From NCBI GenBank assembly GCA_002205965.3, contig NADL03000740.1, positions 1-64,000 on the forward strand: a stretch of DNA of 64,000 nt, read 5' to 3'. Positions 3,359-63,015 of this stretch are shown here, piece after piece. The DNA comes from Kappaphycus alvarezii. Its lineage: Eukaryota; Rhodophyta; Florideophyceae; Gigartinales; Solieriaceae. The first letter of the stretch is position 1. Every line of letters starts with the position of its first letter. The notes under the pieces were generated by a model, which ran no database searches, had not been told where the DNA came from, and worked only from the letters and a program-made list of their open reading frames with translations. Position numbers and translations under genes: made by a program.

Positions 3359-3420
3359 ACCGGAATTTGAAGGTGCAAGGAGAGCCAATCAGGTTATAAA
3401 TCACAATTTTTTCAAAAATC

Positions 3421-6430: not shown

Positions 6431-6548
6431 GAAGGTCCCCAGTCAGTTCCAGTCATGAAGAACCATTAAAAACCTTGTGTTAGACAAAAAAGTCGAGATT
6501 TATCATTGAATCAAACAAAAAGGTCCATCGTGTCCACCATCAGATCGA

Positions 6549-8480: not shown

Positions 8481-8639
8481 CATTACTCCAAGAAGTTATT
8501 ACAAAGACATCCTCAGAATCAACAACATCTCGACCATATCATTCACGAACACTGAGGTAGTGGGGTTGGCAGAAAGAATATGGTAGGGATGAGAACCTCG
8601 AAACCCATTATCAAGATCATAGAGCTCCCTTTGAGCGTC

Positions 8640-9989: not shown

Positions 9990-9998
9990 GGGGAGTGA

Positions 9999-20472: not shown

Positions 20473-20827
20473 AGCAAATGAGTGGAGACTTGGGATTCAT
20501 TACCTGAACTACGCAACTTCTACGGTACCAGCTCAATTCATTCAAAAATGTAGCCTATAAAGCTCTACTGTCAATCTTTAAGACAGCCTGAGTCCACATC
20601 AAGAGGCCTCACGTCTATTTGTATGGACTCATGTGTGATCCGGTTTCCCTTTCACAAAACTAAGTGCTCAGGAGATGTCCCGTGGAGATCCCTAAACCCT
20701 CCAATATCAAATCGCTACTAAGAGAAATATTGAGCCGCTCCGGTGCGCCCATCTGGAATTTTCGAACGTCGCCTTACACTCGGAGGACAGTGATGAAATC
20801 TCGATCTAATGTGTCTTTCCTAGTCCA
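20473..20827. other. Short intergenic region between convergent host genes
   Basis: About 355 bp separate the DPH2 stop from the extended end of the CRAL-TRIO gene. No coding frame, hairpin or clear poly-A signal stands out; it must hold both 3' ends. Confidence 0.5.
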
Positions 20828-20901
20828 TCATACCCAGGACTTTTGCAAATTTCCACCAAACTCAGCGGCGATATCGGGCCAGGTGGATGGAAATGAGGCT
20901 T

Positions 20902-21615: not shown

Positions 21616-22478
21616 GTTGCTCAGTTCAGGCAAGGATGTCGGGGCTTTGTTTCCGCACGGGCATTTGATGACGCTGCGGGTTCGTGAGTTGAGGCGCCGC
21701 CGCTATGGCGACGACGAGATTCATGAGTTGTGTGTTGCGCGGAGGCGGTTCCGCCGGCAAAAAGGTACTTTCGTACGGATGGTAGAGCGGGAACGCTAGG
21801 GAGATAGGATGTGCGGTGGGCATGGGTTTCTGAGTCATTGGTAGTGTGAGGCTGCCGATGTTCGTCGGAGTCTGGTCGAGTTGGGGTTTGAGGGGGGTGG
21901 AATGATTTGGTTGAGTTTGTGGTTGGGGATCGTGTGGGGAATTGTTGCCAAAGTGCATCGAGGGCATTGCCGGAATGGAAGGCATGTAGCGACGCATCGT
22001 TGATGAAAGTTACCAGCACGGAGAATGGGAACGTTAGAGGGCGGTCAAGATTGGCGGTGGGAGGAGTGCGGTACGCGTTGATTAAGGGAGCAGAGGAATA
22101 CGAGCAGGGAGTGAAGGTTTTGCTGGTTAATGCCAAAATTAGCGAGTGTGTTAACGGAGGGAAGAAACGGTCCCTCCAACCAACAGAGCGGAGGACGCGG
22201 TTGATTGGAGAAGTAAGGTGAGGTGGGTGGATAGATTTTTTTCTGACTCGACGAAGATGCAATGTGCAAGCTGAAAAGAAACGATGATTATTATTCTGAG
22301 GTAGAGAACAAGAAACGAAATGGCGGGGCCACGCAAGTGTCTATGAAAGATAATCAGTATGGGGCTTGGGCGGGAATGAAGCATGGATTCACCCTGACCT
22401 CTTGGTGCTCAGAAAAGTCTGGCCAGTAGAAGGGCGGGTACGGAGGCGTAATGAGTGACGGGGCGTGGATGTATGGAT
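21616..22478. other. Upstream region of the CRAL-TRIO gene; two long Pro/Thr/His-rich minus frames
   Basis: Two overlapping minus-strand frames (21,621-22,262 and 21,626-21,997) end at the CRAL-TRIO start. Both are low in complexity (Pro, Thr, Ser, His), and neither resembles a family I know. One could be a first exon or a 5' leader of the CRAL-TRIO mRNA, because an in-frame stop closes the CRAL-TRIO frame near 21,705, but I see no firm splice pair. Base composition is GC-skewed, as in a host promoter or leader. Confidence 0.35.
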
Positions 22479-22480
22479 GG

Positions 22481-22518
22481 TACAGTACAGTACAGTAAAG
22501 TACAGTACAGTACAGTAC
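22481..22518. repeat. (TACAG)n microsatellite
   Basis: Seven near-perfect TACAG units with one TAAAG-type interruption. The same pentamer appears in short runs on the other side of DPH2, so the host gene island is bracketed by it. Confidence 0.9.
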
Positions 22519-28232: not shown

Positions 28233-30050
28233 TCATTGACCTAAAGTCTTCACCTTAAAGTCTTCACCTTGTTTTAAACGAGTCCAACTAGTTTGTATTA
28301 CATCAACAGATACACTTTTCTTGAGCAAAGTCAAACTATCCAATTCTTCGGAACATGTAAAATCTTTGACTTCAACGCACCCAACTGCCCTTTCGGCAAA
28401 TTTAAACACATGAGGGACGGAAAGTTTGAATCTTGACGACATAGTAAAGAAATGCGAGAGGTAACATTTCCGATTTATCCAGTCCACAGCTGTGCACGGC
28501 ACACATTCCGTATTTTTTGCACTATCGGGAACCTATATCATCATCTGGACTGGTAATACTACCTCCGTACGGGCCAATATACGCTTTACTTACCCAAAAA
28601 GCCAGTCATATACATTTTTTGTGTGTCCGGCAACGAGAAAGAAGAGCTCAATGGAGTAATTAAAGCCGAAAATTACCCTCCACGACATTTATCAAAGGAA
28701 GAACCGATTCTCATCCTGTCCACTCCAGTTGTCCGCATGCAAATGGAGTGTCTTTGCATTCTCGGTAAGCTGCCCTGGAGCCTTACAGGCTCCAAGAACA
28801 TGATTTACCATAGAACAGACAACATTTACCGTTTTGGTATTTGGCCAGTGCCCCTCTGTAAATCCAAATAAAAAATTGGTCTTAAAATTGGAGCACAAAA
28901 CACCAAATATATCAAATATGAGACTTGTTATGTAATTCAGCTGCCCTGGCTGTTTTGAAATCCTTGGTAAAAGGACTTTCTCAGCGAAATCAAAAACGAT
29001 GTGTATCACATCTGGCGAACCCGCGGCCTGCTCTTGACAGGACTTGTAAAGCATGAAATCCCCTTTGGCCTGAATCCGATGCTCCATCAACGTGCTGTTG
29101 AGGCTTTTAATTAACGGAATTTTCCAATTAAAACCCTGCATATTATTATTTAGCGTAGTGCAAGTGTCGCAAAAATCTGAGCCACTTTTGGCAATTCTAA
29201 GTGTAGGCAGCGTTTTCTTCCAGTACTGTATGAATAAATTGTAAGAAAGTGGTTCAGGAGGTGGTTTCTGCAATGGTTTTCAGTCTACTTTTCCGTGTAA
29301 AATACTTTCCCATGCGTCTTCGTACGTCTCATGAATTTCAACTTTGGTTACGTCACTCTGTAATATTCTTAGTGGAGCATCCTCCTCGGAGCCTCTTCCC
29401 GATGGGTACTCTAGTGCAAATATGTTTGCATATTGCCGCAGCAATGCTGCTACTATTAATTTTTGCACACTGTGTCTATTCTTTGCACTTCTAGAGCGCC
29501 CACTTGAATACAGAGTTGGTACAGAAGACTGTGACATATTTCAGCATCGCGCTCAACGATTTTGTCGAAAACCTGCAGAATTGCTACAAAATCATTTCGA
29601 CACATTATTCCCTCTAATAAAAAACCATTAAAGTAATGCATCAGTATCGGCACTTTCCGTCCTCTTTTTCTTGTTCATAAAAGTTCGGCTGAACCGAAGC
29701 AACTAGTTTTGCTGGTTATGATGGACGCACGTTGCAAAAAAATGTTCCGAGCACATGCAATCAGATCCGTTTCATTCAATCCCATGAACGCCACAGCAAT
29801 ATACTTTATTCCAGTTTTTTCACAGGATGGAACGCGCTTGCAGAGCGAAATATTCTTTTCATAGTGATTTTCGACCTCCTTATGTCTCTCACTTCCAAAT
29901 TGGCTACCTAATGCAACTCTAGATTCCGCATAGTTGAGTGCAGCACTGCTCTGAACAGCACTAGATGCTACATTCGAACTTGTATGGAGCGGTGCTGTTC
30001 CATCGTCGCTATAAGTGGATTTTTTCTCACTTCCGTCGCAATTATAAGGT
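28233..30050 (-). pseudogene. DUF7869-like transposase relic
   Basis: Minus-strand reading gives, in order: a region near 29,930-29,780 (ALGSQFGSERHKEVE ... CARN); a block with SRSAKNRHSVQKLIV and LRQYANIFALEYPSGRG (29,500-29,370); the Cys motif SDFCDTCTTL (near 29,170); the core at 29,273-28,692 with HIVFDFAEKVLLPR, TEGHWPNTKTVN and HLHADNWSGQDENR; and a C-terminal part, 28,502-28,233. These are the hallmarks of the proteins I remember as DUF7869, a presumed RNase H-fold, DDE-type transposase group common in protists, algae and some animals. The acidic D...D pair (DFAEK, HADN) is present. Frame changes and stops separate the parts. It is related to, but clearly distinct from, the transposase in the palindrome arms. 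Confidence 0.65.
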
Positions 30051-47604: not shown

Positions 47605-48135
47605 ATAACAAGATAATGTTTTGGAGGATGCCGAATCTTTTGATGGAAGGTACAATATCATCGGTCAACATATTAACACCCATTTCGGGAACATAAGGAT
47701 CACTGGGAAAATTGGGACCCTCGGATAAATTTTAAGTCTGACCAACAATCAGCATACAATTATCTTCAGCTGCTTAAGTAAATAATAATTGTGTGCATTT
47801 TATTGGTAATACTTAAGTTGGTGAGGAGTTATGGCTGCTTATGTGGTGTGCATGGTGTACGGACCAAAGCGTAATGCCAGGAAATTGGAAAAAGTAAAAA
47901 ATATATATTATTTCTGCATCACATTTGCTGTAGATGCTCAAGCTGAGACCAACGATATGCAGATTGTGGGAAATAGTTGAGTAGGTGAGGATTTATGTTT
48001 GATTATGTGGTGTGCATGGTGGACAAATCAAATGATAATGACCGAAAAGCTGAAAAAAATAAAGAAAAGTACATCTGCAAAAAAGCAGGTAGCACAGGAT
48101 TAATAAAGCAAAAATGTTATATTTTCAGTTATTTT

Positions 48136-48639
48136 TCAGCATTGTGCAAAGGGTATACCGCTAACACGGTTGGTGCGTCTTGTGCATTCACCGGGTCTAG
48201 GGACGCATACTGCAGTAGGAGAGCTCAGGACAGGGCCTGAAGGTGTGGGCAGGACGAATTCCGTTCCGTCTGACGGTTTGACCGGCATGATGGAATTTCC
48301 ATTTGGTTCGAGTCGGTTCCCGTCGTCTGTTCCCGTGTATTGGACTATGATTGACGGGAGTAGTGCTAGCGGAGGACACTGAGTCTGTTCTTCATTCCGT
48401 TCATTCTGTTGAACAGCTTGAGGAGCAATATGTATTTGAGAATTCCCGACCGGAGGTATGACAGACTGGACTGGAAATTCCTCAGAGGGCAGTTCAGATT
48501 GGACATATTCGTTCTCCTGACGACTACTAACACCTGAAACTATGCTGCGCTCCCTCGTTAATAGAGAATTCATTGTTGCGAGAGTTATGCGGTCCCTGCT
48601 TTCTGTATCTTCCTGGTTTCTGTGACGAGTAGTATCCAT
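48136..48639 (-). CDS. Disordered 167-residue protein, left-arm copy
   Basis: Exact mirror of 61,981-62,484: an intact ATG-to-stop frame, 167 codons, rich in Ser, Pro, Gln, Glu and Thr, with no hydrophobic core, membrane segment or motif I recognise. It starts MDTTRHRNQEDTESRDR and ends GIPFAQC. It follows the GxHR-box gene by about 30 bp in the transcribed direction and may be its last exon or a separate small gene of the element. Confidence 0.5.
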   Translation of the reverse strand: MDTTRHRNQEDTESRDRITLATMNSLLTRERSIVSGVSSRQENEYVQSELPSEEFPVQSVIPPVGNSQIHIAPQAVQQNERNEEQTQCPPLALLPSIIVQYTGTDDGNRLEPNGNSIMPVKPSDGTEFVLPTPSGPVLSSPTAVCVPRPGECTRRTNRVSGIPFAQC

Positions 48640-48672
48640 TTGAATGCGGTCGCGGATCTAAGCGCATAATGA

Positions 48673-49347
48673 TTAAATACTCCTAAATAATCTCTTATCA
48701 TGTAACATGACTGTACCATAGCCCGCAATAGCAGTGAACGCAACTTTGTCGCCTTCATTAAGAGCAGGATGCTCCTCAGACATCAGCTTGTGTATGAACT
48801 GTATTGATTCAGTGGGAAGCCTCATTACTATAACATACAACAGTCTAATGCTGTTAATGTGGTTGCGGTCTCTCCCTCCACATTAAAGCCTAGCCACAGA
48901 TTCTTGAGAAGGTTTCTCGACATCTCCACCAAGCTCGACAATCATTACAGACACGATGCGTTATAGCTCCCTCAGCCTGTCCCCAATTATCACATAAATG
49001 TAGTTGTCCTCAGTCTGATTTTCGTTACAATCCTTTGCGAATAACCGCAGGGCGTCAAAGTCCGAACAGTTGGCAATATCAACCCACTACTTGTACCCAA
49101 ACCAGCGAGTGTGATTCTCCTCCTCTAGACGAGCCAACGCTTGGCACCGGTGGGCTCCATTGAAAATTCTAAACCAGTTGTTAAACTTTTGTAGCCTTGC
49201 TTGGCTCCTTTCCGATGAAATCCCTTGAGCCACAAAATCTGAGAGAACCTGTTCCTCTGTAATGTTCACAACTAAGGGCCCCCCATACTGGAACTATATC
49301 CCACCACACTGCTAGATGTCTTTTCAATGCTTTCGAAGGTTGCCATG
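48673..49347 (-). pseudogene. GxHR-box (ParB-like) gene, left-arm copy
   Basis: Mirror of 61,273-61,947; see that entry for motifs. The frame runs MATFESIEK ... FNGAHRCQALARL ... HTRWFGYK to an in-frame TAG, then continues in the same frame through two more stops. The arm copies agree with one another. Confidence 0.5.
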
Positions 49348-50000
49348 AGGTACTCAACACCACTGGTCAGGAAGCTGCTACGCTATGAGCTTTAACGGTT
49401 TTGTCTGCATACTGAAAATAAACTCTCTCTCTCTCCCCCCCTGGACTTATACGTTCAATTGCATTTTTCATTACTGTGATTGGTTCGTGAAGGAATGGGC
49501 CAAGCAAATAACGACATTGAAGCTTTAATTATTGATTTAGGGCACTAGGACCGGCGTGCCCGTTTAGGAGTGCACAGAGCGCTAGATTTAAGTATAGATG
49601 TGAGGCATCTGAAGCGTGAGCGATTTTCTAGAACCCAGGAGCGCATACACCATTCTCTGCTTGCTTTTACTTTTTCCCCGGAATTACTCGCCAATATTGT
49701 TCCGCGGAACAATTTCCTAGTGCTGATACATCTGTGAACGAATATTTTTCTTATCAGCAGGGTGAATGGTGTGCCTTGCGGTTAGCCCGTACCCCAGCCT
49801 GCACAGAATGGTGTTGACTTGTAACTCCGCCACATACGCCCTGCGTTGATAACTAACGATCCATGCAAGCCTCTATGGTCCATTAAAAGCATCACTGCCA
49901 CGTGTCAGCTTCACTATTGTAGATGGCTCAATCCATTGAATATTCAAAAAGACAGGGAACCCTTGTGTATTCTGCGGTGAATTGAATGCACGGTAGCCAA

Positions 50001-51749
50001 CTAGAATCGTATGTTTGGCCTAGACTCTGGAAGGGGAGCCCTAACATCCGCGATATCCCCTCTTGAATATTCGTGATTATCAATAACTTCCTTTGTGTCC
50101 ACGTGAGCCTTTTCAATTTGTAAATTACCATTGTCTTCAGTCGTATCACCAGTAGTATTCATAGTGCCTTCATTATGTTTTTCCCTATACCTTCCCGTCA
50201 TCTCAAAAGTAGTAGCCAAGTTCCAATGGGGTGTTACAGTGCGGGAGCGGAAAATCTCATCCCGAAGTCCACGCAGAATTCCGCTTTCTTCGAGCCTCCG
50301 GGAAGACTCTATGCACTCTCGATACATCTATTGATCTCCCCCAAATGCGGAGGAAAGCTGACTTGTAGGGATGGAAGTACGTTAAGGTCAGGCACGGTGT
50401 CATCAGCAAGAACGCCATTACCATCAGCCCAGGGAAGGGGTTCCCACTCATCATAATACTGAATTTGACTTGACACTGCGGGCGATAGAGGCTAAGTTCT
50501 GTGGTCGGAATCTCACCATCTTTTTGTGGCCCTTGTAGCAAACCAGATACTCCTGAAATGAGAGGAGGCATCTAAGTTTCGGAGGTAAGACTCTTCCCTC
50601 ATTTCCATGGGTGCAGACCAGTATACCATGGTCTTCATTCGAGAAAAAATGGGCTGCGGTGTGTATGAGGCCCTTAACTATTGGTTCATATCATCGAGAG
50701 TTACAGCATCATTACCATACAGCCTTATCTTGATCCGGGAGAGAACTTTATCGATATCCTCGTCAGTATGGCCGGCGGGTTGAAAATTCACCATCACCTG
50801 CTTGAATACCCCTCTGGTAACCAGAATTTCCAGATATGAGAGAAAATACCGTTTTTTGTTCTCGCTTGTACAATTTTCCAATTGGACAAAGAACACCTGA
50901 GGCAACCCACCAGCAGTAATTTTCTTGTTGAGAACTCGATGGAACGTCTCATTGCTATGGTTTGCACCAGTGCCATGTTCCTCGCTGAGAGTGAAGAGGG
51001 AAAATACTTTTGATGCGCCGTGCTCTAACGAACCAATCAGCTTAATCTTGAGTTTCCTACCCCTGTCTTCCTTTTTGGATGTTACGGAGTGAGGGATTCC
51101 GTAGGCGCGCTTGTCTGCTCCGTCTATTATTATCGAGCAGTACATCTCTGGGTGAGAAACAGCCTCGGCCCGGCGCTCAAAGTATGCCTGCCTCTCAAAC
51201 GATATCTTCTCTAAATGCTCCCTCTTCTTCGACACGAGATCAGTCGAGGCCAGCCTGAACAACGCGCTTATTGATAGTGGCACAGGTAGTGCAGATTGTA
51301 AAACGACTAGTCTGGCGAATAATAACGTTGGGCATGAACTCGTTTCCATAGCCTATAAAAATATGCCTCAGTGGGGAGTTTCATATGCTCACCCTTCTTA
51401 TCAAGGTGGCTGAAATACTTTTCGAAAACCTCGAAGACATGTTTCTTTTGCTGCTGTGTCGAGCGCTTGGCATTCTATCCCCAACCAAGTCAGCATACTT
51501 ATGCAAGAACTTGAGGACAGCGTCACGTTGAGTAAACGTCTTTACTTCAAGTGGCATGAACTCCACTGTGCTAGGGGCTCCAGTGGATGGAAGTCCCTTC
51601 ACGGAAGCCCTGAGACACTTCGAGAATCCGAAAGGCTTTACGAGGAATTTTTCGCAAACGCGACGCCCGTTAAATCGAGAACAATCCATTTCTCTGTTAA
51701 ACATATCCCTCAGTGCCCTCTTTGTGGTCGCACGGTCTGCTCCGATCAA
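50001..51749 (-). pseudogene. DUF7869-like transposase, left-arm copy
   Basis: Mirror of 58,872-60,618. In this copy the core frame (51,349-50,678) stays open 16 codons longer than in the right arm, through DIDKVLSRIKIRLYGNDAV, because the right arm lacks one T at about 59,876. The N-terminal frame is 51,749-51,381 and the C-terminal frames are 50,571-50,257 and 50,327-50,001. As in the right arm, the N-terminal, core and C-terminal parts lie in different frames, so it is either spliced or broken; no clear intron consensus was found at the joins. Confidence 0.65.
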
Positions 51750-51820
51750 TCGCTTGTATTATCCAAAAGCATACTGAGTATCTACTTCCATGAAACATTG
51801 GGCAACACATCATTTTCTCT

Positions 51821-51871
51821 ATGACCTTCCTTACAGAGCCGGCATTGAGCCGGCCCTGTAAGGAAGGTCAT
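51821..51871. repeat. 51-bp hairpin, left-arm copy
   Basis: ATGACCTTCCTTACAG and CTGTAAGGAAGGTCAT pair over 16 bp, then one mismatch, then GCCGGC with GCCGGC over 6 bp, leaving a 5-base loop. It lies about 70 bp upstream of the transposase reading frame. Mirror copy at 58,750-58,800. Confidence 0.9.
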
Positions 51872-51930
51872 GTACTGTAGTGTTACCCATCAGCGACGAC
51901 TTATCCCGCATAACACATTAGCCGCGTGGA

Positions 51931-51971
51931 TATAACCGACCACATCTTCCATGCATTAAAATAACCCAAAA
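51931..51971 (+). repeat. 41-bp conserved repeat, left-arm copy
   Basis: Identical to 18,303-18,343 over 41 bases and to the mirror position 58,650-58,690. It lies 60 bp on the far side of the hairpin from the transposase, where a promoter would be expected. Relatives form the tails of the LINE fragments at 27.9 and 46.8 kb. Confidence 0.85.
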
Positions 51972-52260
51972 GTTTCCCCTTTTCTCTCTTGCTCGAAAGG
52001 GTTACCCTGTCGTTGTACAGCGGCAACCCGTCGGGCGCGAAGTGTCGTTGGAGTTATTACCCTTGCGTTACCTTGCCTGCTCGTTTTGATATACCTCCTC
52101 TTCTTTCTCCATGAATCAATTCATGCTCCGATTGCTTCCTGCTCCCCCTCATTTCTTCCTCTCTTCCCCTACCCCTTGCAACAGTTTCATCATAAATCTC
52201 ACCCTCCTATTCACCCTCCTCATGTGAACCCTCGCTGCCATCAACATAATCCTCCTTTAA

Positions 52261-52635
52261 TTACTCATAGAAGCCTGTTTGTCTGCGAGAGGTCCTCAAA
52301 CCTCGACGACTAACGACTCTGGAAGAATGCATGGCTTCCTCTTTTCGGACGTAGTTTTCATTCCTTCCAACTCTATACAGAGAGCTTGCACCCCGCTTTC
52401 TTGCAACCACAGGCTCGATGCGATCCAAAGCTTTTGCGGTGGTCTCTACTTTCGAGACGGGCTCGATGCGATCCTCATCAGTTGTGCCCTGCCTCTCTAA
52501 AACAACTGGCTCGATGCGATCCTCATCAGTTGTGCCCTGTATCTCTAAAACAACGGGTTCGATGCGATCTTCACTAGTAATATTTCTAGATCCCACACCA
52601 CCAAGCAGGTCCACCGCCCATTCTGGGGAGGTCAC
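52261..52635 (-). CDS. Repeat-containing frame, left-arm copy
   Basis: Mirror of 57,986-58,360, described there. The DNA repeat (48-bp unit) lies at about 52,405-52,575. Confidence 0.4.
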   Translation of the reverse strand: MTSPEWAVDLLGGVGSRNITSEDRIEPVVLEIQGTTDEDRIEPVVLERQGTTDEDRIEPVSKVETTAKALDRIEPVVARKRGASSLYRVGRNENYVRKEEAMHSSRVVSRRGLRTSRRQTGFYE

Positions 52636-54789
52636 TTGCCGAGGTTCAGATTGTAGGGCAATTTTGTGGTCTAAAGCTTGCAGGCAGTATAAGTCCTAGG
52701 CAAAAAATGCCTTGAAGTACTTTCCCGCATCGGAAGGAAATAGTGGAGGGAGTCTGTGCGATAGTTGGGAGAGGTTTGGATCGGAGCAGAAAGGGAAATG
52801 TCAGTGTGGGGAATACGTGAAGGGAGGGAAACGGGGAATTGTTGTGGGGAAGACGAAGATTACGATGAAAGAGTGTTTTGACGTCTATATATAGATAACG
52901 TTGGGACATCAACGGTGAAGGATTATCAAGCAGAGCGTTGAGTCTTTATTTTCGGGTATGCCCAAAATTGCTCAGTGTCGGGCCAAAAATCACTGATAAT
53001 GTATAGTAATACGTCATATCACTGCAAGTATAATATAATGCATCAAGGGAGTGTAAATAGAACAAGTAGTGATGGTATGGCCAATATTCTCCAGCATTGT
53101 GTATACTTACGTACGTAATCGAATATCAGCATGTATAGTGGTATGTAACCGTAGAAAAAAATTTATTAAAATCAGGATTAGGATATCATTGGTGATACGA
53201 CGAGTTTATCAAAAATAGCGGTAGTCATGTGATACTTCTATTTATAAAAGTATAAGTGAACGGCTACGTGGAACTTTGGAAACAAGGGGATTGAGAAATA
53301 CGAACAGACATTCCGGAAATGCTCTGGGAGAACCAGGTCCATAAATAGAGGTAAGGGTAGCATTCCAGGAGGAAATTAATAACAACTAAAGCAAAGTATC
53401 ATTTTTAATATTGAAAAAGCCAACTCATGTATGGAACTCATCATTTCATATAACTTCGATGTATTGGTAGCTAGATTACAATGATATGGTTATATTGTTT
53501 ATAAATGTGTATAAACACACTGGGTGCCACGGGTATGCCGGTGGGTAGGGGAAGGAATGTACAGGAGCAGGGATGTACTGGTGGGAGGATGTTGGTTAAA
53601 GGATTACAATGCCAAAAAAAAATTAAAATTTTAATGCATGATCATCATCAACTGTTGACGATAAATTTGAGAACAGCGCCATGATTAAGTGCACAACATC
53701 ATGACATGATGCAATGATGCGGAATCAAATTTTCTGGGTCTGGTACATGTTATTGATGGAAGACCTGAGGGCCATGTAGTGCTATACGTCATATGTATCA
53801 TACATGTGTCTGATCGGATGGGGTAGTTTGGTAATAAAAAGTAGGGTGATCATAATCTTTGTTATAAAAAGGTACGTAGAACCATCACCATAAAGCATGG
53901 CCAAGTCTGGAACGAAAGATCAGCCTTGTAGCCCCGTTTATGCCCACCACGTACAAATGGCGCTGGTTAGGAGTAATGCTGACTCATCGTGGGGACTATG
54001 AAGACCCCATCGGTGTGCAGGGGTCATCTGAAAGGGACGTAAATTGGAAGATATATGGTTTTGAGTGCTTGGGAGGGGTTCAGCTTTTCGCGGAAATTAA
54101 GTAAGGTATGGTACGGATTCTCGTTCGGGAATGAGAACCATATCCTTGATCGGCAGATCAAAATAAAGAGTGAATTTTGCTTCCCCCTAGAATATTCATT
54201 TCTAGCCTTTTTTGCTGGTAGGCAACAATTTCTGTTTCCCTTCTGTATTATGGTAAGCATTCGCGATCCTAAAAAACATTCCAAATTTAGGTTTTTTTCC
54301 TTTGGCCCATGCCACCCATACTTTTGATTTCCTGATCAAACTTCAAGTCATTTCGGCCTACCTAAAGAGCATTCTCTGGAATAAGTGGAGTATGGGGGGT
54401 CTGACCCCCCTCAATCTCATTTTCATGAGACCAGAGGTTTTAGTATTCACCATTAGTGCCTCCACAGCAAAATTGTTCCACCCTCACAACTATAACTCTC
54501 CGCCGTCGTGGTCCTAAGGCATTGGGCGTATGACCCCTTCACCCTCCCCAAACAAGCTCATCGAGATCGGCATGAAAGCTTTTCAATGAAATGGGGTTAA
54601 TTAATATTACACGCTGCGCACCAGTGCCTGAAAGTTGGTTTAGTACTTAATTCTAACAACAGTGAATGTCAACCACTGACCCTCCTACCTGCTCTCATAC
54701 ATATGGTTGGACATAAGTCCAATTCAGTGCTCAGGACCACATCTGTCCCAACCCTGCCACTGCCTTCAAATTGGACATTGCTCAGACTC

Positions 54790-54970
54790 AGCCACCACCA
54801 CCTCTCCTCTCCCTCCAAAAAACCCCTGTACTTTACGCAGATTTTTCCATCCCCTCTCCCCTCCTTCCAAACTCTCTCTTTTCTTGATCCAGAAATTTTG
54901 CCATACCCTCTATCCTCCCTCCAATATCTCTCATTATTTGATCTATATATTTTCCTTATCTCTCCCAATT
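54790..54970. repeat. Degenerate CT-rich tandem repeat
   Basis: About three units of roughly 54-60 bp. Each has CCTCTCCCCTCC- or CCCTCTATCCTCC-like pyrimidine tracts followed by ATTTT or ATCTTTCC. On the minus strand it translates to repeating (Y/W)REDRGYGKI-type blocks in frame, but there is no evidence that it is expressed. Confidence 0.6.
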
Positions 54971-55188
54971 AAATTCAGAAGTGGTAAACGAACCCCTACC
55001 TGATCCTTTCCTTCTTTAATCTCACCTCATCCCCATTACCTTAATCCTCATCGTTACTACGGTACTTATTCTGTCGATACAGCTCCCTATCAGAACCATA
55101 CCAGCAGCGAGGGAATCAACGTCGGCACCTGATAACGTCTACACTTTGGAGCAAAATGCATTCCATGAGCTCATGAAAACCATTAGGA

Positions 55189-55738
55189 TTGGAACAGTGG
55201 ACCTCAGCCTGTGTATCCCACACAAAAGTACGGGAAATTGTGAGCAGGGATGTTGAGTACCTCATGGCAACCTTCGAAAGCATTGAACAGAAATCTAGCA
55301 GTTTGGTGGGATATAGTTCCAGTATGGGGGGGCCCTTCGTTGTGAACATTACAGAGGAACAGGTTCTCTCAGATTTTGTGGCTCAAGGGATTTCATCGGA
55401 AAGGAGCCAAGCAAGACTACAACAGTTTAACAACTGGTTTGGAATTTTCAATGGAGCCCACCGGTGCCAAGCGTTGGCTCGTCTAGCGGAGGAGAATCAC
55501 ACTCGCTGGTTTGGGTACAAGTAGTGGGTTGATATTGCCGACTGTTCGGACTTTGACGCCCTGCGGGTATTCGCAAGGGATTGTAACGAAAAGCATACTG
55601 AGGACAACTACATTTACGGGACAATTGGGGACAGGCTGAGGGACTTATAACGTATCGTGTCTGTGATTATTGTCGAGCTTGGTGGAGATGTCGAGAAACC
55701 TTCTCAAGAATCTGTGGCTAGGCTTTAATATAGAGGGG
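55189..55738 (+). pseudogene. Partial GxHR-box gene in the palindrome centre
   Basis: From 55,250 to 55,738 it matches 61,262-61,747 with about 25 differences over some 485 bp (about 95%). Upstream of 55,250 it carries 60 or more bases of extra open frame (EQWTSACVSHTKVREIVSRD) that the arms lack, so this copy keeps more of the gene's 5' part. It has the same FNGAHRCQALARL box. It also has the same three in-frame stops as the arms (after GYK, after the DRLRDL segment and after ESVARL). Most differences from the arm copy change the amino acid, which indicates drift without selection. Similarity ends just after the third stop. Confidence 0.6.
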
Positions 55739-55816
55739 TAATTTCTCGCACCACTCCGAAAATACCCAAACGCCGCCGATTGGATCCTTCAGTGGCTCTT
55801 CGCGGCTTATCCTTCC

Positions 55817-56131
55817 ATGCAGGATTCCGCTAATCTCGATGTAAAACTCTCCCGCGGTTTTCGCTTTCTGCACGTCTGCGGAGCTCGTGAATTCATCTAC
55901 ATTGATGGTGGAACCATTCTCCAAAACAGGTCCACTATCCTCTTACCTTTCGAATGCAAGGGGGCCATCGTTTGCGGTTACTTCACCGAAAAAACCTTTG
56001 ATCACGTTTCTTCGCTGCAACTTCTCTCCGGCAAGTACGTTTTTTGCCCACAAGCGAGAGAGCTAATTGTGGTTTCTAAAGTACATATTACACGATCGGT
56101 GCCTAACGACCACGACGGCGGAGAGTTATAG
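55817..56131 (+). CDS. Hypothetical frame crossing the right palindrome junction
   Basis: 104 codons from an ATG (MQDSANLDVKLSRGFRFLHV ...), and the frame is open upstream to about 55,750, so it could be longer. It reads like a compact folded protein, with several hydrophobic strands and Cys residues (FLHVCGAREFIYIDGG, AIVCGYF, YVFCPQARELIVVSK), but I do not recognise it. The last eight codons (VPNDHDGGEL region) lie inside the right arm. Only one copy exists in the window, since the left arm's junction continues into different DNA. Confidence 0.45.
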   Translation: MQDSANLDVKLSRGFRFLHVCGAREFIYIDGGTILQNRSTILLPFECKGAIVCGYFTEKTFDHVSSLQLLSGKYVFCPQARELIVVSKVHITRSVPNDHDGGEL

Positions 56132-57727
56132 TTGTGAGGGTGGAACAATTTTGCTGTGGAGGCACTAATGGTGAATACTAAAACCTCTGGTCTCATGAAA
56201 ATGAGATTGAGGGGGGTCAGACCCCCCCATACTCCACTTATTCCAGAGAATGCTCTTTAGGTAGGCCGAAATGACTTGAAGTTTGATCAGGAAATCAAAA
56301 GTATGGGTGGCATGGGCCAAAGGAAAAAAACCTAAATTTGGAATGTTTTTTAGGATCGCGAATGCTTACCATAATACAGAAGGGAAACAGAAATTGTTGC
56401 CTACCAGCAAAAAAGGCTAGAAATGAATATTCTAGGGGAAGCAAAATTCACTCTTTATTTTGATCTGCCGATCAAGGATATGGTTCTCATTCCCGAACGA
56501 GAATCCGTACCATACCTTACTTAATTTCCGCGAAAAGCTGAACCCCTCCCAAGCACTCAAAACCATATATCTTCCAATTTACGTCCCTTTCAGATGACCC
56601 CTGCACACCGATGGGGTCTTCATAGTCCCCACGATGAGTCAGCATTACTCCTAACCAGCGCCATTTGTACGTGGTGGGCATAAACGGGGCTACAAGGCTG
56701 ATCTTTCGTTCCAGACTTGGCCATGCTTTATGGTGATGGTTCTACGTACCTTTTTATAACAAAGATTATGATCACCCTACTTTTTATTACCAAACTACCC
56801 CATCCGATCAGACACATGTATGATACATATGACGTATAGCACTACATGGCCCTCAGGTCTTCCATCAATAACATGTACCAGACCCAGAAAATTTGATTCC
56901 GCATCATTGCATCATGTCATGATGTTGTGCACTTAATCATGGCGCTGTTCTCAAATTTATCGTCAACAGTTGATGATGATCATGCATTAAAATTTTAATT
57001 TTTTTTTGGCATTGTAATCCTTTAACCAACATCCTCCCACCAGTACATCCCTGCTCCTGTACATTCCTTCCCCTACCCACCGGCATACCCGTGGCACCCA
57101 GTGTGTTTATACACATTTATAAACAATATAACCATATCATTGTAATCTAGCTACCAATACATCGAAGTTATATGAAATGATGAGTTCCATACATGAGTTG
57201 GCTTTTTCAATATTAAAAATGATACTTTGCTTTAGTTGTTATTAATTTCCTCCTGGAATGCTACCCTTACCTCTATTTATGGACCTGGTTCTCCCAGAGC
57301 ATTTCCGGAATGTCTGTTCGTATTTCTCAATCCCCTTGTTTCCAAAGTTCCACGTAGCCGTTCACTTATACTTTTATAAATAGAAGTATCACATGACTAC
57401 CGCTATTTTTGATAAACTCGTCGTATCACCAATGATATCCTAATCCTGATTTTAATAAATTTTTTTCTACGGTTACATACCACTATACATGCTGATATTC
57501 GATTACGTACGTAAGTATACACAATGCTGGAGAATATTGGCCATACCATCACTACTTGTTCTATTTACACTCCCTTGATGCATTATATTATACTTGCAGT
57601 GATATGACGTATTACTATACATTATCAGTGATTTTTGGCCCGACACTGAGCAATTTTGGGCATACCCGAAAATAAAGACTCAACGCTCTGCTTGATAATC
57701 CTTCACCGTTGATGTCCCAACGTTATC

Positions 57728-57739
57728 TATATATAGACG
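57728..57739 (+). promoter_or_regulatory. TATA-like element in the right arm
   Basis: CTATATATAG lies about 250 bp before the repeat-containing frame in the outward direction. The mirror copy is at 52,882-52,893. It is the most promoter-like site in the arm, but no start-site evidence exists. Confidence 0.35.
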
Positions 57740-57985
57740 TCAAAACACTCTTTCATCGTAATCTTCGTCTTCCCCACAACAATTCCCCGTTTCCCTCCCT
57801 TCACGTATTCCCCACACTGACATTTCCCTTTCTGCTCCGATCTAAACCTCTCCCAACTATCGCACAGACTCCCTCCACTATTTCCTTCCGATGCGGGAAA
57901 GTACTTCAAGGCATTTTTTGCCTAGGACTTATACTGCCTGCAAGCTTTAGACCACAAAATTGCCCTACAATCTGAACCTCGGCAA

Positions 57986-58360
57986 GTGACCTCCCCAGAA
58001 TGGGCGGTGGACCTGCTTGGTGGTGTGGGATCTAGAAATATTACTAGTGAAGATCGCATCGAACCCGTTGTTTTAGAGATACAGGGCACAACTGATGAGG
58101 ATCGCATCGAGCCAGTTGTTTTAGAGAGGCAGGGCACAACTGATGAGGATCGCATCGAGCCCGTCTCGAAAGTAGAGACCACCGCAAAAGCTTTGGATCG
58201 CATCGAGCCTGTGGTTGCAAGAAAGCGGGGTGCAAGCTCTCTGTATAGAGTTGGAAGGAATGAAAACTACGTCCGAAAAGAGGAAGCCATGCATTCTTCC
58301 AGAGTCGTTAGTCGTCGAGGTTTGAGGACCTCTCGCAGACAAACAGGCTTCTATGAGTAA
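57986..58360 (+). CDS. Repeat-containing frame, right-arm copy
   Basis: 124 codons ending in a stop at 58,360, with no ATG near the upstream edge, so it is probably an exon or starts at an internal ATG. Residues about 21-66 are a tandem repeat of 16 residues: EDRIEPVVLEIQGTTD, EDRIEPVVLERQGTTD, then EDRIEPVSKVETTAKA and a partial DRIEPVVARKRGA. The rest is rich in Arg and Ser (SSRVVSRRGLRTSRRQTGF). I know no family like this; the basic tail could bind nucleic acid. It lies about 500 bp before the transposase, on the same strand, and may be an N-terminal accessory protein of the element. Confidence 0.45.
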   Translation: MTSPEWAVDLLGGVGSRNITSEDRIEPVVLEIQGTTDEDRIEPVVLERQGTTDEDRIEPVSKVETTAKALDRIEPVVARKRGASSLYRVGRNENYVRKEEAMHSSRVVSRRGLRTSRRQTGFYE

Positions 58361-58649
58361 TTAAAGGAGGATTATGTTGATGGCAGCGAGGGTTCACATG
58401 AGGAGGGTGAATAGGAGGGTGAGATTTATGATGAAACTGTTGCAAGGGGTAGGGGAAGAGAGGAAGAAATGAGGGGGAGCAGGAAGCAATCGGAGCATGA
58501 ATTGATTCATGGAGAAAGAAGAGGAGGTATATCAAAACGAGCAGGCAAGGTAACGCAAGGGTAATAACTCCAACGACACTTCGCGCCCGACGGGTTGCCG
58601 CTGTACAACGACAGGGTAACCCTTTCGAGCAAGAGAGAAAAGGGGAAAC

Positions 58650-58690
58650 TTTTGGGTTATTTTAATGCATGGAAGATGTGGTCGGTTATA
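58650..58690 (-). repeat. 41-bp conserved repeat, right-arm copy
   Basis: Reverse complement of 51,931-51,971 and 18,303-18,343, identical over 41 bases. It lies 60 bp before the hairpin and 180 bp before the transposase frame. Confidence 0.85.
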
Positions 58691-58749
58691 TCCACGCGGC
58701 TAATGTGTTATGCGGGATAAGTCGTCGCTGATGGGTAACACTACAGTAC

Positions 58750-58800
58750 ATGACCTTCCTTACAGGGCCGGCTCAATGCCGGCTCTGTAAGGAAGGTCAT
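58750..58800. repeat. 51-bp hairpin, right-arm copy
   Basis: Same structure as 51,821-51,871: 16 bp plus 6 bp of pairing with one mismatch and a 5-base loop. Its position just before the transposase suggests a transposase-binding site, a structured mRNA leader, or the relic of a small inverted-repeat insertion. Confidence 0.9.
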
Positions 58801-58871
58801 AGAGAAAATGATGTGTTGCCCAATGTTTCATGGAAGTAGATACTCAGTATGCTTTTGGATAATACAAGCGA

Positions 58872-60618
58872 TTGATCGGAGCAGACCGTGCGACCACAAA
58901 GAGGGCACTGAGGGATATGTTTAACAGAGAAATGGATTGTTCTCGATTTAACGGGCGTCGCGTTTGCGAAAAATTCCTCGTAAAGCCTTTCGGATTCTCG
59001 AAGTGTCTCAGGGCTTCCGTGAAGGGACTTCCATCCACTGGAGCCCCTAGCACAGTGGAGTTCATGCCACTTGAAGTAAAGACGTTTACTCAACGTGACG
59101 CTGTCCTCAAGTTCTTGCATAAGTATGCTGACTTGGTTGGGGATAGAATGCCAAACGCTCGACACAGCAGCAAAAGAAACATGTCTTCGAGGTTTTCGAA
59201 AAGTATTTCAGCCACCTTGATAAGAAGGGTGAGCATATGAAACTCCCCACTGAGGCATATTTTTATAGGCTATGGAAACGAGTTCATGCCCAACGTTATT
59301 ATTCGCCAGACTAGTCGTTTTACAATCTGCACTACCTGTGCCACTATCAATAAGCGCGTTGTTCAGGCTGGCCTCGACTGATCTCGTGTCGAAGAAGAGG
59401 GAGCATTTAGAGAAGATATCGTTTGAGAGGCAGGCATACTTTGAGCGCCGGGCCGAGGCTGTTTCTCACCCAGAGATGTACTGCTCGATAATAATAGACG
59501 GAGCAGACAAGCGCGCCTACGGAATCCCTCACTCCGTAACATCCAAAAAGGAAGACAGGGGTAGGAAACTCAAGATTAAGCTGATTGGTTCGTTAGAGCA
59601 CGGCGCATCAAAAGTATTTTCCCTCTTCACTCTCAGCGAGGAACATGGCACTGGTGCAAACCATAGCAATGAGACGTTCCATCGAGTTCTCAACAAGAAA
59701 ATTACTGCTGGTGGGTTGCCTCAGGTGTTCTTTGTCCAATTGGAAAATTGTACAAGCGAGAACAAAAAACGGTATTTTCTCTCATATCTGGAAATTCTGG
59801 TTACCAGAGGGGTATTCAAGCAGGTGATGGTGAATTTTCAACCCGCCGGCCATACTGACGAGGATATCGATAAAGTCTCTCCCGGATCAAGATAAGGCTG
59901 TATGGTAATGATGCTGTAACTCTCGATGATATGAACCAATAGTTAAGGGCCTCATACACACCGCAGCCCATTTTTTCTCGAATGAAGACCATGTATACTG
60001 GTCTGCACCCATGGAAATGAGGGAAGAGTCTTACCTCCGAAACTTAGATGCCTCCTCTCATTTCAGGAGTATCTGGTTTGCTACAAGGGCCACAAAAAGA
60101 TGGTGAGATTCCGACCACAGAACTTAGCCTCTATCGCCCGCAGTGTCAAGTCAAATTCAGTATTATGATGAGTGGGAACCCCTTCCCTGGGCTGATGGTA
60201 ATGGGGTTCTTGCTGATGACACCGTGCCTGACCTTAACGTACTTCCATCCCTACAAGTCAGCTTTCCTCCGCATTTGGGGGAGATCAATAGATGTATCGA
60301 GAGTGCATAGAGTCTTCCCGGAGGCTCGAAGAAAGCGGAATTCTGCGTGGACTTCGGGATGAGATTTTCCGCTCCCGCACTGTAACACCCCATTGGAACT
60401 TGGCTACTACTTTTGAGATGACGGGAAGGTATAGGGAAAAACATAATGAAGGCACTATGAATACTACTGGTGATACGACTGAAGACAATGGTAATTTACA
60501 AATTGAAAAGGCTCACGTGGACACAAAGGAAGTTATTGATAATCACGAATATTCAAGAGGGGATATCGCGGATGTTAGGGCTCCCCTTCCAGAGTCTAGG
60601 CCAAACATACGATTCTAG
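58872..60618 (+). pseudogene. DUF7869-like transposase, right-arm copy
   Basis: N-terminal frame 58,872-59,240: GRRVCEKFLVKPFGFSKCLR and a FTQRDAVLKFLHKYADLVG block, typical of the family's N-terminal region. Then EYFSHLDKK/KLPTEAYFYRLWK-type text and a TICTTCATI Cys motif in another frame (59,200-59,370). Core 59,385-59,895: REHLEKISFERQAYFERRAE, the catalytic-type YCSIIIDGADKRAYG, TGANHSNETFHRVL, VQLENCTSENKKRYF and FQPAGHTDEDIDK. C-terminal part to about 60,618, with WADGNGVLADDTVPDLNVLP and SFPPHLGEINRCIES in another frame. Members normally have QLDNC; here it is QLENC. A presumed RNase H-fold, DDE-like transposase. The parts lie in different frames, and this copy lacks one T at about 59,876 relative to the left arm. 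It is non-functional unless spliced. Confidence 0.7.
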
Positions 60619-61261
60619 TTGGCTACCGTGCATTCAATTCACCGCAGAATACACAAGGGTTCCCTGTCTTTTTGAATATTCAATGGATTGAGCCATCTAC
60701 AATAGTGAAGCTGACACGTGGCAGTGATGCTTTTAATGGACCATAGAGGCTTGCATGGATCGTTAGTTATCAACGCAGGGCGTATGTGGCGGAGTTACAA
60801 GTCAACACCATTCTGTGCAGGCTGGGGTACGGGCTAACCGCAAGGCACACCATTCACCCTGCTGATAAGAAAAATATTCGTTCACAGATGTATCAGCACT
60901 AGGAAATTGTTCCGCGGAACAATATTGGCGAGTAATTCCGGGGAAAAAGTAAAAGCAAGCAGAGAATGGTGTATGCGCTCCTGGGTTCTAGAAAATCGCT
61001 CACGCTTCAGATGCCTCACATCTATACTTAAATCTAGCGCTCTGTGCACTCCTAAACGGGCACGCCGGTCCTAGTGCCCTAAATCAATAATTAAAGCTTC
61101 AATGTCGTTATTTGCTTGGCCCATTCCTTCACGAACCAATCACAGTAATGAAAAATGCAATTGAACGTATAAGTCCAGGGGGGGAGAGAGAGAGAGTTTA
61201 TTTTCAGTATGCAGACAAAACCGTTAAAGCTCATAGCGTAGCAGCTTCCTGACCAGTGGTG
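60619..61261. other. Non-coding spacer in the right arm
   Basis: Holds the transposase 3' end, a TTCCGCGGAACAATATTGGCG stretch containing the palindrome GTTCCGCGGAAC (60,908-60,919), and a short (GA)n run at 61,183-61,197. Mirrored at about 49,359-50,001. Confidence 0.5.
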
Positions 61262-61272
61262 TTGAGTACCTC

Positions 61273-61947
61273 ATGGCAACCTTCGAAAGCATTGAAAAGA
61301 CATCTAGCAGTGTGGTGGGATATAGTTCCAGTATGGGGGGGCCCTTAGTTGTGAACATTACAGAGGAACAGGTTCTCTCAGATTTTGTGGCTCAAGGGAT
61401 TTCATCGGAAAGGAGCCAAGCAAGGCTACAAAAGTTTAACAACTGGTTTAGAATTTTCAATGGAGCCCACCGGTGCCAAGCGTTGGCTCGTCTAGAGGAG
61501 GAGAATCACACTCGCTGGTTTGGGTACAAGTAGTGGGTTGATATTGCCAACTGTTCGGACTTTGACGCCCTGCGGTTATTCGCAAAGGATTGTAACGAAA
61601 ATCAGACTGAGGACAACTACATTTATGTGATAATTGGGGACAGGCTGAGGGAGCTATAACGCATCGTGTCTGTAATGATTGTCGAGCTTGGTGGAGATGT
61701 CGAGAAACCTTCTCAAGAATCTGTGGCTAGGCTTTAATGTGGAGGGAGAGACCGCAACCACATTAACAGCATTAGACTGTTGTATGTTATAGTAATGAGG
61801 CTTCCCACTGAATCAATACAGTTCATACACAAGCTGATGTCTGAGGAGCATCCTGCTCTTAATGAAGGCGACAAAGTTGCGTTCACTGCTATTGCGGGCT
61901 ATGGTACAGTCATGTTACATGATAAGAGATTATTTAGGAGTATTTAA
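61273..61947 (+). pseudogene. GxHR-box (ParB-like) gene, right-arm copy
   Basis: 225 codons in one frame from the ATG at 61,273 to the stop at 61,945-61,947, interrupted only by three in-frame stops (a TAG near 61,531, a TAA near 61,658 and a TAA near 61,735). The segment NITEEQVLSDFVAQGIS ... KFNNWFRIFNGAHRCQALAR resembles the ParB/sulfiredoxin-like fold motif in which a G-x-H-R box (GAHR) binds a nucleotide. Downstream text (EEHPALNEGDKVAFTAIAGYG) is protein-like. No family assignment beyond that is justified. It lies directly after the transposase on the same strand, as a second gene of the element would. The centre copy suggests that the arms lack the gene's true 5' end. Confidence 0.5.
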
Positions 61948-61980
61948 TCATTATGCGCTTAGATCCGCGACCGCATTCAA

Positions 61981-62484
61981 ATGGATACTACTCGTCACAG
62001 AAACCAGGAAGATACAGAAAGCAGGGACCGCATAACTCTCGCAACAATGAATTCTCTATTAACGAGGGAGCGCAGCATAGTTTCAGGTGTTAGTAGTCGT
62101 CAGGAGAACGAATATGTCCAATCTGAACTGCCCTCTGAGGAATTTCCAGTCCAGTCTGTCATACCTCCGGTCGGGAATTCTCAAATACATATTGCTCCTC
62201 AAGCTGTTCAACAGAATGAACGGAATGAAGAACAGACTCAGTGTCCTCCGCTAGCACTACTCCCGTCAATCATAGTCCAATACACGGGAACAGACGACGG
62301 GAACCGACTCGAACCAAATGGAAATTCCATCATGCCGGTCAAACCGTCAGACGGAACGGAATTCGTCCTGCCCACACCTTCAGGCCCTGTCCTGAGCTCT
62401 CCTACTGCAGTATGCGTCCCTAGACCCGGTGAATGCACAAGACGCACCAACCGTGTTAGCGGTATACCCTTTGCACAATGCTGA
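61981..62484 (+). CDS. Disordered 167-residue protein, right-arm copy
   Basis: Intact ATG-to-stop frame, the longest undamaged one in the arm. Polar, rich in Ser, Pro, Gln, Glu and Thr, with PSEEFPVQSVIPPVG and VQYTGTDDGNRLEPNG segments and no recognised domain. It begins 33 bp after the GxHR-box frame. It could be the C-terminal tail of that protein joined by splicing, or a chance open frame preserved because the copy is young. Confidence 0.5.
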   Translation: MDTTRHRNQEDTESRDRITLATMNSLLTRERSIVSGVSSRQENEYVQSELPSEEFPVQSVIPPVGNSQIHIAPQAVQQNERNEEQTQCPPLALLPSIIVQYTGTDDGNRLEPNGNSIMPVKPSDGTEFVLPTPSGPVLSSPTAVCVPRPGECTRRTNRVSGIPFAQC

Positions 62485-62596
62485 AAAATAACTGAAAATA
62501 TAACATTTTTGCTTTATTAATCCTGTGCTACCTGCTTTTTTGCAGATGTACTTTTCTTTATTTTTTTCAGCTTTTCGGTCATTATCATTTGATTTG

Positions 62597-62807
62597 TCCA
62601 CCATGCACACCACATAATCAAACATAAATCCTCACCTACTCAACTATTTCCCACAATCTGCATATCGTTGGTCTCAGCTTGAGCATCTACAGCAAATGTG
62701 ATGCAGAAATAATATATATTTTTTACTTTTTCCAATTTCCTGGCATTACGCTTTGGTCCGTACACCATGCACACCACATAAGCAGCCATAACTCCTCACC
62801 AACTTAA
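62597..62807. repeat. Pair of ~48-bp direct repeats near the outer end of the right arm
   Basis: ACCATGCACACCACATAATC...CATAAATCCTCACC at 62,597-62,643 and ACCATGCACACCACATAAGC...CATAACTCCTCACC at 62,760-62,807 differ at a few positions and lie 163 bp apart. Their surroundings are also loosely alike, so a diverged tandem duplication of about 165 bp is likely. Mirror copies are at 47,813-47,860 and 47,977-48,023. Subterminal repeats of this kind are common transposase-binding sites. Confidence 0.75.
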
Positions 62808-63015
62808 GTATTACCAATAAAATGCACACAATTATTATTTACTTAAGCAGCTGAAGATAATTGTATGCTGATTGTTGGTCAGACTTAAAATTTATCCGAG
62901 GGTCCCAATTTTCCCAGTGATCCTTATGTTCCCGAAATGGGTGTTAATATGTTGACCGATGATATTGTACCTTCCATCAAAAGATTCGGCATCCTCCAAA
63001 ACATTATCTTGTTAT

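What the first reader, a model, noticed from the sequence alone, without database searches (positions are those of the whole stretch)
47605..63015. 15.4-kb near-perfect palindrome with outward-facing transposase genes
Two 6.9-kb inverted arms, more than 99.8% identical but not identical (at least three substitutions and three single-base indels), flank a 1.6-kb unique centre. Each arm carries a full multi-gene DNA-transposon-like unit. Ordinary terminal inverted repeats are tens to hundreds of bases, so this is either a composite of two head-to-head copies, a transposon class with giant inverted arms kept alike by gene conversion, or an assembly or amplification artefact.
Basis: partly seen in the sequence, partly recalled or inferred. 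Interest (0 to 1): 0.9.

Follow-up and report, generated by a model that had tools for sequence, protein, structure and literature searches.

The report
Mirror-image duplication inside a transposon
In a red seaweed genome, one decayed mobile element with unusually long mirror-image ends appears to have had half of itself copied backwards next to the other half, giving a 15-kb mirror-image stretch, and a second such stretch on the same contig hints that this kind of element is prone to such accidents.

Summary
The palindrome is real: arms w47605-54513 and w56108-63015 (6.9 kb) differ by 3 substitutions and 5 one-base homopolymer indels. The host is a red alga. Each arm carries a decayed, outward-facing DUF7869 gene. 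The assembly holds the simple form at the homologous site on contig C585: one ~10-kb element with 1.7-kb terminal inverted repeats (TIRs). Against it, the palindrome is two tail-to-tail, unequally truncated copies; its centre holds a 497-bp TIR remnant; the left arm overruns the TIR end by 74 bp of copied right flank; C585's left flank has no counterpart. This fits an inverted duplication with deletion. TIRs are also more alike within than between loci, so arm-to-arm copying operates too, and the age is unsettled. A second palindrome with the same anatomy (9.8-kb arms) lies at C736:544821-571284; related loci C131 and C41 have inverted arms of at least 5.1 and 4.6 kb. Verdict: composite of two copies, not a mobile 15-kb unit, probably not an artefact (reads not available). 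New variant of a known kind (Galileo/Foldback-like TIR expansion).

The parts
47605..54513 (-). Left palindrome arm (copy of right flank + 1.7-kb TIR + element body)
56108..63015 (+). Right palindrome arm, inverted copy of the left arm; this side has the flank shared with C585
47601..47674 (+). 74-bp inverted copy of the right flank (w62946-63019) lying outside the left TIR end: overrun
47675..49369 (+). Left TIR (1.7 kb); end AACACCCATTTCGGG
61250..62945 (-). Right TIR, 0 of 1695 substitutions from the left TIR
50678..51349 (-). DUF7869 (PF25273, E=8.4e-30) gene piece, probable transposase, left arm; E in place of the second conserved D
59272..59895 (+). Same gene in right arm; its open frame ends earlier than in the left arm, at the one-base indel at 59876
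51821..51980 (.). 160-bp MITE-like high-copy repeat in left arm, absent from the C585, C509 and C837 copies
58641..58800 (.). Same MITE-like repeat in right arm
54514..54563 (+). Left inner edge: 21 bp homologous to the right arm and C585 but diverged, then filler where segment X (about 340 bp) is missing
54564..55240 (+). Segment Y, part of the element present only in the left half
55241..55738 (+). T: inner part of the far TIR, truncated at 55738; 5.2% diverged from the arm TIRs
55742..56107 (-). Segment X, only in the right half; holds a fragment shared (89-90%) with C513 and C627; the right half ends here

Best explanation
The stretch is one long-TIR DUF7869 transposon locus rearranged by an inverted duplication with deletion. 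Ancestral state (as kept at C585): flank - TIR - DUF7869 body - X - Y - TIR - flank. A break or stalled copy inside the element joined the half that kept its flank (right flank - TIR - body - X) to the middle of the far TIR (T) in opposite orientation, so that T - Y - body - TIR follows as a mirror copy. Copying ran 74 bp past the TIR end into a second copy of the same right flank and was then joined to other DNA at w47600, with loss of the original left flank. The long TIRs (inverted homology), and possibly transposase cuts, make such events likely. Shown: anatomy, order of segments, overrun, no counterpart of the C585 left flank, one copy found in the assembly. Inferred: that one event made both joins, the repair route (sister fusion, strand switch or gap repair), and that it is recent rather than an older palindrome made alike again.
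For: C585 holds every piece of the palindrome in one plain order with two TIRs. The right flank from w63019 on is collinear with C585 to w72.9 kb, so the right half is in place. w47601-47674 is a copy of that right flank outside the left TIR. The C585 left flank (first 2.0 kb) has no match in C736 and only short weak ones elsewhere. The join at w55738-55742 is inside a TIR and shows no long homology. A MITE-like repeat sits at the same place in both arms and in none of the C585, C509 and C837 copies. The same anatomy recurs at C736:544821-571284: arms 9.85 kb, 98.4%; one half stops inside DUF7869 and is joined, with about 1 bp shared, to a point inside the far TIR; the other half is complete and runs on into a copy of flanking repeat DNA that stops abruptly at 571284.
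Against: At the left inner edge 5 of 21 positions match C585 and not the right arm (3 the reverse), so there L and R do not look like recent copies of each other. Segment X is missing from the left half, which needs a separate deletion. The origin of the DNA just left of w47600 is unknown (one search scored only 40 of 2385 candidates). No reads, no population data.
Confidence: 0.55

Rival explanations
1. Older palindrome of the same composite kind whose arms have been kept alike by arm-to-arm gene conversion; the near-identity dates the last conversion, not the origin.
For: TIRs within a locus are far more alike than between loci: window 0/1695, C585 38/1701, C509 23/913 substitutions, against 215-221 of about 1690 between window and C585. 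T is closer to its own arms (5.2%) than to C585's TIRs (14.5-14.9%). The 21 bp just inside the identical tract are diverged. In the second palindrome 3.5 kb of arm has no substitution while 7 of 20 bins have 1.0-2.6%, as conversion tracts would give.
Against: At the outer edge identity runs to within 4 bp of the boundary. 9 of 21 differences is more than the roughly 12-14% divergence from C585 would give by age alone, though 21 bp is a tiny sample.
Confidence: 0.3
2. A transposon class with giant TIRs: the whole 15.4-kb unit moves and its 6.9-kb arms are its TIRs.
For: C131 and C41 have inverted arms of at least 5.1 and 4.6 kb that share segments at two places.
Against: Outer edges lie 74 bp beyond the TIR end in flank shared with C585; no target-site duplication seen; one copy found. 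Single relatives have TIRs of 0.9-1.7 kb. The C131 and C41 arms hold other repeats and their outer ends were not reached, so they too may include flank.
Confidence: 0.08
3. Assembly or library artefact (fold-back chimera, mis-joined repeat, or two haplotypes joined).
For: All five arm indels are one-base homopolymer differences, typical of noisy long-read assemblies (the read type is not known to me).
Against: A fold-back chimera gives a perfect palindrome; here X, Y and T sit asymmetrically, the outer flanks differ, and the right flank is collinear with C585 for nearly 10 kb. No third near-identical copy (haplotype contig) was found.
Confidence: 0.05
4. Two independent insertions of the same transposon side by side in opposite orientation, later trimmed.
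For: Two outward-facing copies.
Against: The inner ends are not transposon ends, the left copy carries 74 bp of the right copy's flank, and both share the MITE-like repeat and 99.96% identity.
Confidence: 0.02

Closest known systems
Galileo / Foldback long-TIR DNA transposons of Drosophila (PMC3573991; passages read)
   Same: Long TIRs of very variable length; TIRs extended by recruiting internal sequence; the authors propose a break in one TIR repaired from the other with a tract that runs on into the body (TIR1-F1-F1-TIR2), which predicts this kind of structure.
   Different: Galileo TIRs there range from 18 bp to 1.25 kb and its transposase is of the P superfamily; here arms reach 6.9-9.8 kb, the gene is DUF7869, a remnant of the old TIR is left in the centre, and the copy overruns into flanking DNA.
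Human inverted duplications adjacent to deletions, formed by fold-back (PMC3907307; abstract and passages read)
   Same: Inverted copies separated by a single-copy spacer (there 766 bp-70 kb; here about 1.2 and 6.9 kb) and loss of sequence on one side; in 3 of 21 junctions homologous inverted repeats were used.
   Different: Here the event is local (kilobases), inside a transposon, and in both loci the half that stops early is on the kept-flank side.
Breakage-fusion-bridge at maize Ds / double Ds (recalled, nothing read)
   Same: Transposon-associated inverted joining of sister copies.
   Different: No evidence of transposase action was obtained here.
KDZ (Kyakuja-Dileera-Zisupton) transposons (search listing only)
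   Same: Large eukaryotic DNA transposons (recalled).
   Different: The Pfam scan gave DUF7869 and no KDZ model.

Membership tests
Class II (TIR) DNA transposon | Terminal inverted repeats on a single element | tested here: met
   C585 1707 bp at 97.5%, C509 923 bp at 97.1%
Class II (TIR) DNA transposon | Target-site duplication | tested here: inconclusive
   C585 reads TATT on both sides (by eye); C509 shows none; the palindrome shows none
Class II (TIR) DNA transposon | DDE/D-type transposase | tested here: inconclusive
   DUF7869 alignment columns D276 26/26, D358 26/28, D398 26/27, D400 27/27; no PDB relative by profile at E<=1; the fold job never finished
KDZ superfamily | Match to a KDZ transposase model in Pfam | tested here: not met
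   For the DUF7869 piece only DUF7869 and one unrelated weak hit at E<=1
Foldback/Galileo-like element | Long TIRs of variable length between copies | tested here: met
   0.9, 1.7, >=4.6, >=5.1, 6.9 and 9.8 kb inverted arms; arms at C131, C41 and the second palindrome may include flank
Foldback/Galileo-like element | P-superfamily transposase (Galileo proper) | tested here: not met
   Pfam gives DUF7869
Inverted duplication with deletion | Single-copy spacer between inverted copies | tested here: met
   Y+T (about 1.2 kb) in the window; 6.9 kb at C736:554643-561536; T itself repeats part of the TIR
Inverted duplication with deletion | Loss of the sequence beyond the break | tested here: met
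   First 2.0 kb of the C585 left flank has no counterpart in C736. Assumes that C585 keeps the ancestral flank
Inverted duplication with deletion | Short inverted homology at the fold-back join | tested here: inconclusive
   About 1 bp at the second locus; none evident at w55738-55742 (by eye)
Assembly artefact | No spanning reads / single-copy depth | not testable with these tools
   No reads held

The most novel reading that the evidence does not exclude
DUF7869 elements of this red alga are a palindrome-generating machine: their inverted ends repeatedly seed repair that copies half an element (and some flank) backwards, so inverted ends grow from under 1 kb to nearly 10 kb, and palindromes with homogenised arms arise again and again as ordinary family evolution, not as one accident.
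Probability: 0.35. Interest if true: 0.6.

Novelty: new variant of a known kind. Interest (0 to 1): 0.45.

Why it matters
It gives a before-and-after pair (C585 against the window), plus a second case, for a step proposed for Galileo: growth of terminal inverted repeats by break repair from the opposite end. It also shows DUF7869, a domain whose Pfam name gives no function and which no paper of the searched library names, sitting in multi-copy elements with long inverted ends, which points to a transposon role. Large palindromes are easily taken for artefacts or for special chromosome features (general knowledge); here a transposon repair route accounts for one. I did not search specifically for earlier reports of palindromes in red algae beyond one mixed query (listing only).

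Tried and rejected
Rejected: giant mobile TIR unit (edges overrun the TIR, one copy found); two plain insertions; simple fold-back chimera. One TIR-to-TIR gap-repair event was considered: it explains the X/T join but not the 74-bp flank copy or the missing left flank without a second event. Simple deletion of X from a fresh perfect palindrome was considered: it does not explain the 21 diverged bases at the inner edge; a 30-base string from there (w54520-54549) has no other match within 3 mismatches in the assembly. My early reading that long inverted arms were confined to the palindromes was wrong.

Led nowhere: Rfam (0 matches at gathering scores); DUF7869 in papers (0 papers); Kappaphycus papers (nothing usable in the listings); paper query on template switching (2 listed, not read); protein search with the window DUF7869 piece (0 of 372 candidates at E<=0.001); PDB profile search; structure prediction, not finished in 18 collecting calls between 96 and 124. 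Self-comparison of the 8 loci L026-L033 (3.4-3.6 kb each) found no inverted repeats, but they are too short to test.

Inverted arms of 0.9 kb or more were found at 6 of 9 loci of this element group that I looked at: window, C736:544-571 kb, C131, C41 (coordinates only), C585, C509; not at C837, C744 (10 kb searched) or C662 (only 1.5 kb on each side compared). C509, C837 and C41 gave no DUF7869 match, so they are relatives without that gene. The sample is biased: the second palindrome was picked as an outward-facing pair among 144 matches (150 of 187 candidates scored), and C131 and C41 as its relatives. In the other DNA fetched up to then (180 kb outside the window, plus w1-47000) the only inverted repeats of 300 bp or more (200 bp in the window) were the C585 and C509 TIRs.
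Full report
WHAT IS THERE. The window is bases 1-64000 of contig C736 (2,606,893 bases) in an assembly of 336,021,096 bases and 884 contigs. The DPH2-like ORF w18808-20469 has its best matches in a transcript without species name (72%) and, among named ones, Gracilariopsis chorda (46%) and Gracilaria domingensis (42%), so the host is a red alga. Size and contig number fit Kappaphycus alvarezii as I recall its assembly; I could not verify that.

THE PALINDROME. Arms w47605-54513 and w56108-63015 are reverse complements with 3 substitutions and 5 one-base indels, all indels in homopolymers. The indels may be assembly errors. Each arm carries a DUF7869 gene piece (left arm: PF25273, E=8.4e-30) reading outward. 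The family is conserved for DGAD, DNC.RENKN and GHTHEDIDQ; the window copy has E for the second D and other changes, so it is probably dead. Homologues exist among public proteins (45 with E<=0.001 of 737 candidates for a C169 copy), none of them named. DUF7869 has 144 matches in this genome (150 of 187 candidates scored), and none in 14 control genomes.

THE SINGLE-COPY RELATIVE. The closest relative outside C736 is C585:3865.1-3875.2 kb, 86% (one search scored 40 of 2291 candidates, all of theirs). C585 and C736 are collinear in inverted order over C736 10.5-72.9 kb and C585 3899-3856 kb, 78-95%, so this is a duplicated or homoeologous region, and the shared insertion point says that the transposon was there before the split (inference). 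The C585 element is single: TIRs 3865196-3866899 and 3873508-3875214 (1707 bp, 97.5%), order TIR_L - body - X - Y - TIR_R. Its ends read AACAC..., with TATT on both sides (by eye). C509 has another single element with 0.92-kb TIRs (97.1%); C837 a truncated relative. Within 3 mismatches of the end pattern the assembly has five hits: one at C585, two in the window, two at C509.

HOW THE WINDOW DIFFERS. Left half: TIR - body - (X missing) - Y - T, where T is the inner 497 bp of the far TIR, cut at w55738. Right half: TIR - body - X, cut at w55742. The halves meet there. The right flank is the C585 flank and stays collinear to w72.9 kb. The left arm also ends in 74 bp of that right flank (w47601-47674), after which unrelated sequence begins. 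The first 2.0 kb of the C585 left flank has no counterpart in C736 and only short matches of 67-81% elsewhere. The last 2.2 kb left of the palindrome matched only a high-copy 200-bp repeat (but only 40 of 2385 candidates were scored there). So the right half is in place, the left half is a mirror copy that overran, and the original left flank is gone, if C585 keeps the ancestral flank.

COPYING BETWEEN ARMS. TIR substitutions: window L against R 0/1695, C585 38/1701, C509 23/913; window against C585 215-221 of about 1690. T differs from its own arms by 5.2% but from C585's TIRs by 14.5-14.9%. So the two ends of one element have been made alike within the locus. A MITE-like repeat at w51821-51980 is in both arms and in none of the C585, C509 and C837 copies. 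At the inner edge 21 bases are homologous in L, R and C585: 11 all the same, 5 L=C585, 3 R=C585, 1 L=R, 1 all different. This speaks for an older split of L and R at that spot and against a wholly fresh duplication, but it is only 21 bases.

A SECOND CASE. Among the 144 DUF7869 matches I looked by eye for close outward-facing pairs; the only other one was on C736 itself. It is a palindrome: arms 544821-554643 and 561536-571284, 9.85 kb, 98.4%, spacer 6.9 kb. Against C131 its right part is an element in C131's order, cut inside the far TIR at 554643; its left half stops inside DUF7869 and is joined there with about 1 bp shared (by eye). Its arms run on into a multi-copy repeat (gypsy-like by eye) that continues beyond the left arm edge but stops at the right one. 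So, as in the window, the half that stops early has the continuing flank, and the half contiguous with T has the overrun. Arm identity is uneven: no substitution in 545821-549320, 1.0-2.6% in 7 of 20 bins of 500 bp.

FAMILY BACKGROUND. In 10 contigs the DUF7869 module and a ParB-like/methyltransferase-like module lie on opposite strands kilobases apart (40 of 48 candidates scored; counted by eye). The ParB-like call rests on motif resemblance and a weak GmrSD_N hit (E=0.067, below the cut-off), the methyltransferase on a DPPYG motif, recalled and without a database hit. C131 has inverted arms of at least 5.1 kb, 98.1%, running off the fetched DNA. C41 has paired inverted matches to the same arms over at least 4.6 kb (coordinates only). 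Both hold other repeats, and their outer ends were not reached, so they may include flank. A segment downstream of the DUF7869 domain is in both arms of C131 and of the second palindrome, on one side only in C41, and gives one match each in 11 further contigs: in the first two the arms seem to have taken in coding sequence. The ParB-like segment is likewise in both TIRs of the window (25-26% identity, E 9e-8 and 5e-7) but at one place in C131. C131 has a 2.65-kb insertion in both arms that both arms of the second palindrome lack; this suits arm-to-arm copying but could also predate the arms. C662 showed no inverted repeat in the 1.5 kb compared on each side and C744 none in 10 kb, so long inverted ends are not shown to be universal.

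MECHANISM. Best reading: inverted duplication with deletion inside a long-TIR transposon; one side kept, the other half a mirror copy that runs out through the TIR into flank and is joined to other DNA. Whether by sister-chromatid fusion, replication strand switch or one-sided gap repair cannot be told. A paper on Galileo proposes the closely related step (break in one TIR repaired from the other, tract running into the body; PMC3573991, passages). Human inverted duplications show the spacer and the deletion (PMC3907307, abstract and passages). The age is unsettled: recent duplication (0.55) against an older palindrome with conversion (0.3).

VERDICT. Observation confirmed with corrected edges; interpretation partly supported; new variant of a known kind; interest 0.45.

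Noticed in passing
C736:544821-571284 (L034-L037): Second large palindrome on the same contig, arms 9.85 kb at 98.4%, centre 6.9 kb, also built on a DUF7869 element.
   Followed up: yes
C131:148001-166000 (L039-L041) and C41:401444-415203: Related loci with inverted arms of at least 5.1 and 4.6 kb; arm ends not reached.
   Followed up: partly
C317:2486-30253: Five copies of a 1.1-kb arm segment: three direct at 7.6-kb steps, then two inverted 7.6 kb apart; looks like an inverted tandem array.
   Followed up: no
window 18565-24611: Gene block (DPH2-like, CRAL-TRIO) is 4.2% diverged from C585 while other collinear pieces are 11-22% diverged; selection or gene conversion between the two regions.
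   Followed up: no
window 28380-28928: A second, degenerate DUF7869 match with several stops, about 19 kb from the palindrome.
   Followed up: no
window 55742-56082: Fragment of about 340 bp shared at 89-90% with C513 and C627, whose own flanks resemble each other: looks like a captured gene piece inside the transposon.
   Followed up: partly
C736:555970-556500 and C131:159184-159878: DPPYG methyltransferase-like ORF beside a ParB-like ORF in DUF7869 elements; no Pfam hit for it.
   Followed up: partly
window 1-10000: LINE-like (w3.5-5 kb) and gypsy-like (w7-10 kb, reverse transcriptase hit at w7015-7497) retroelement pieces (names partly by eye).
   Followed up: no
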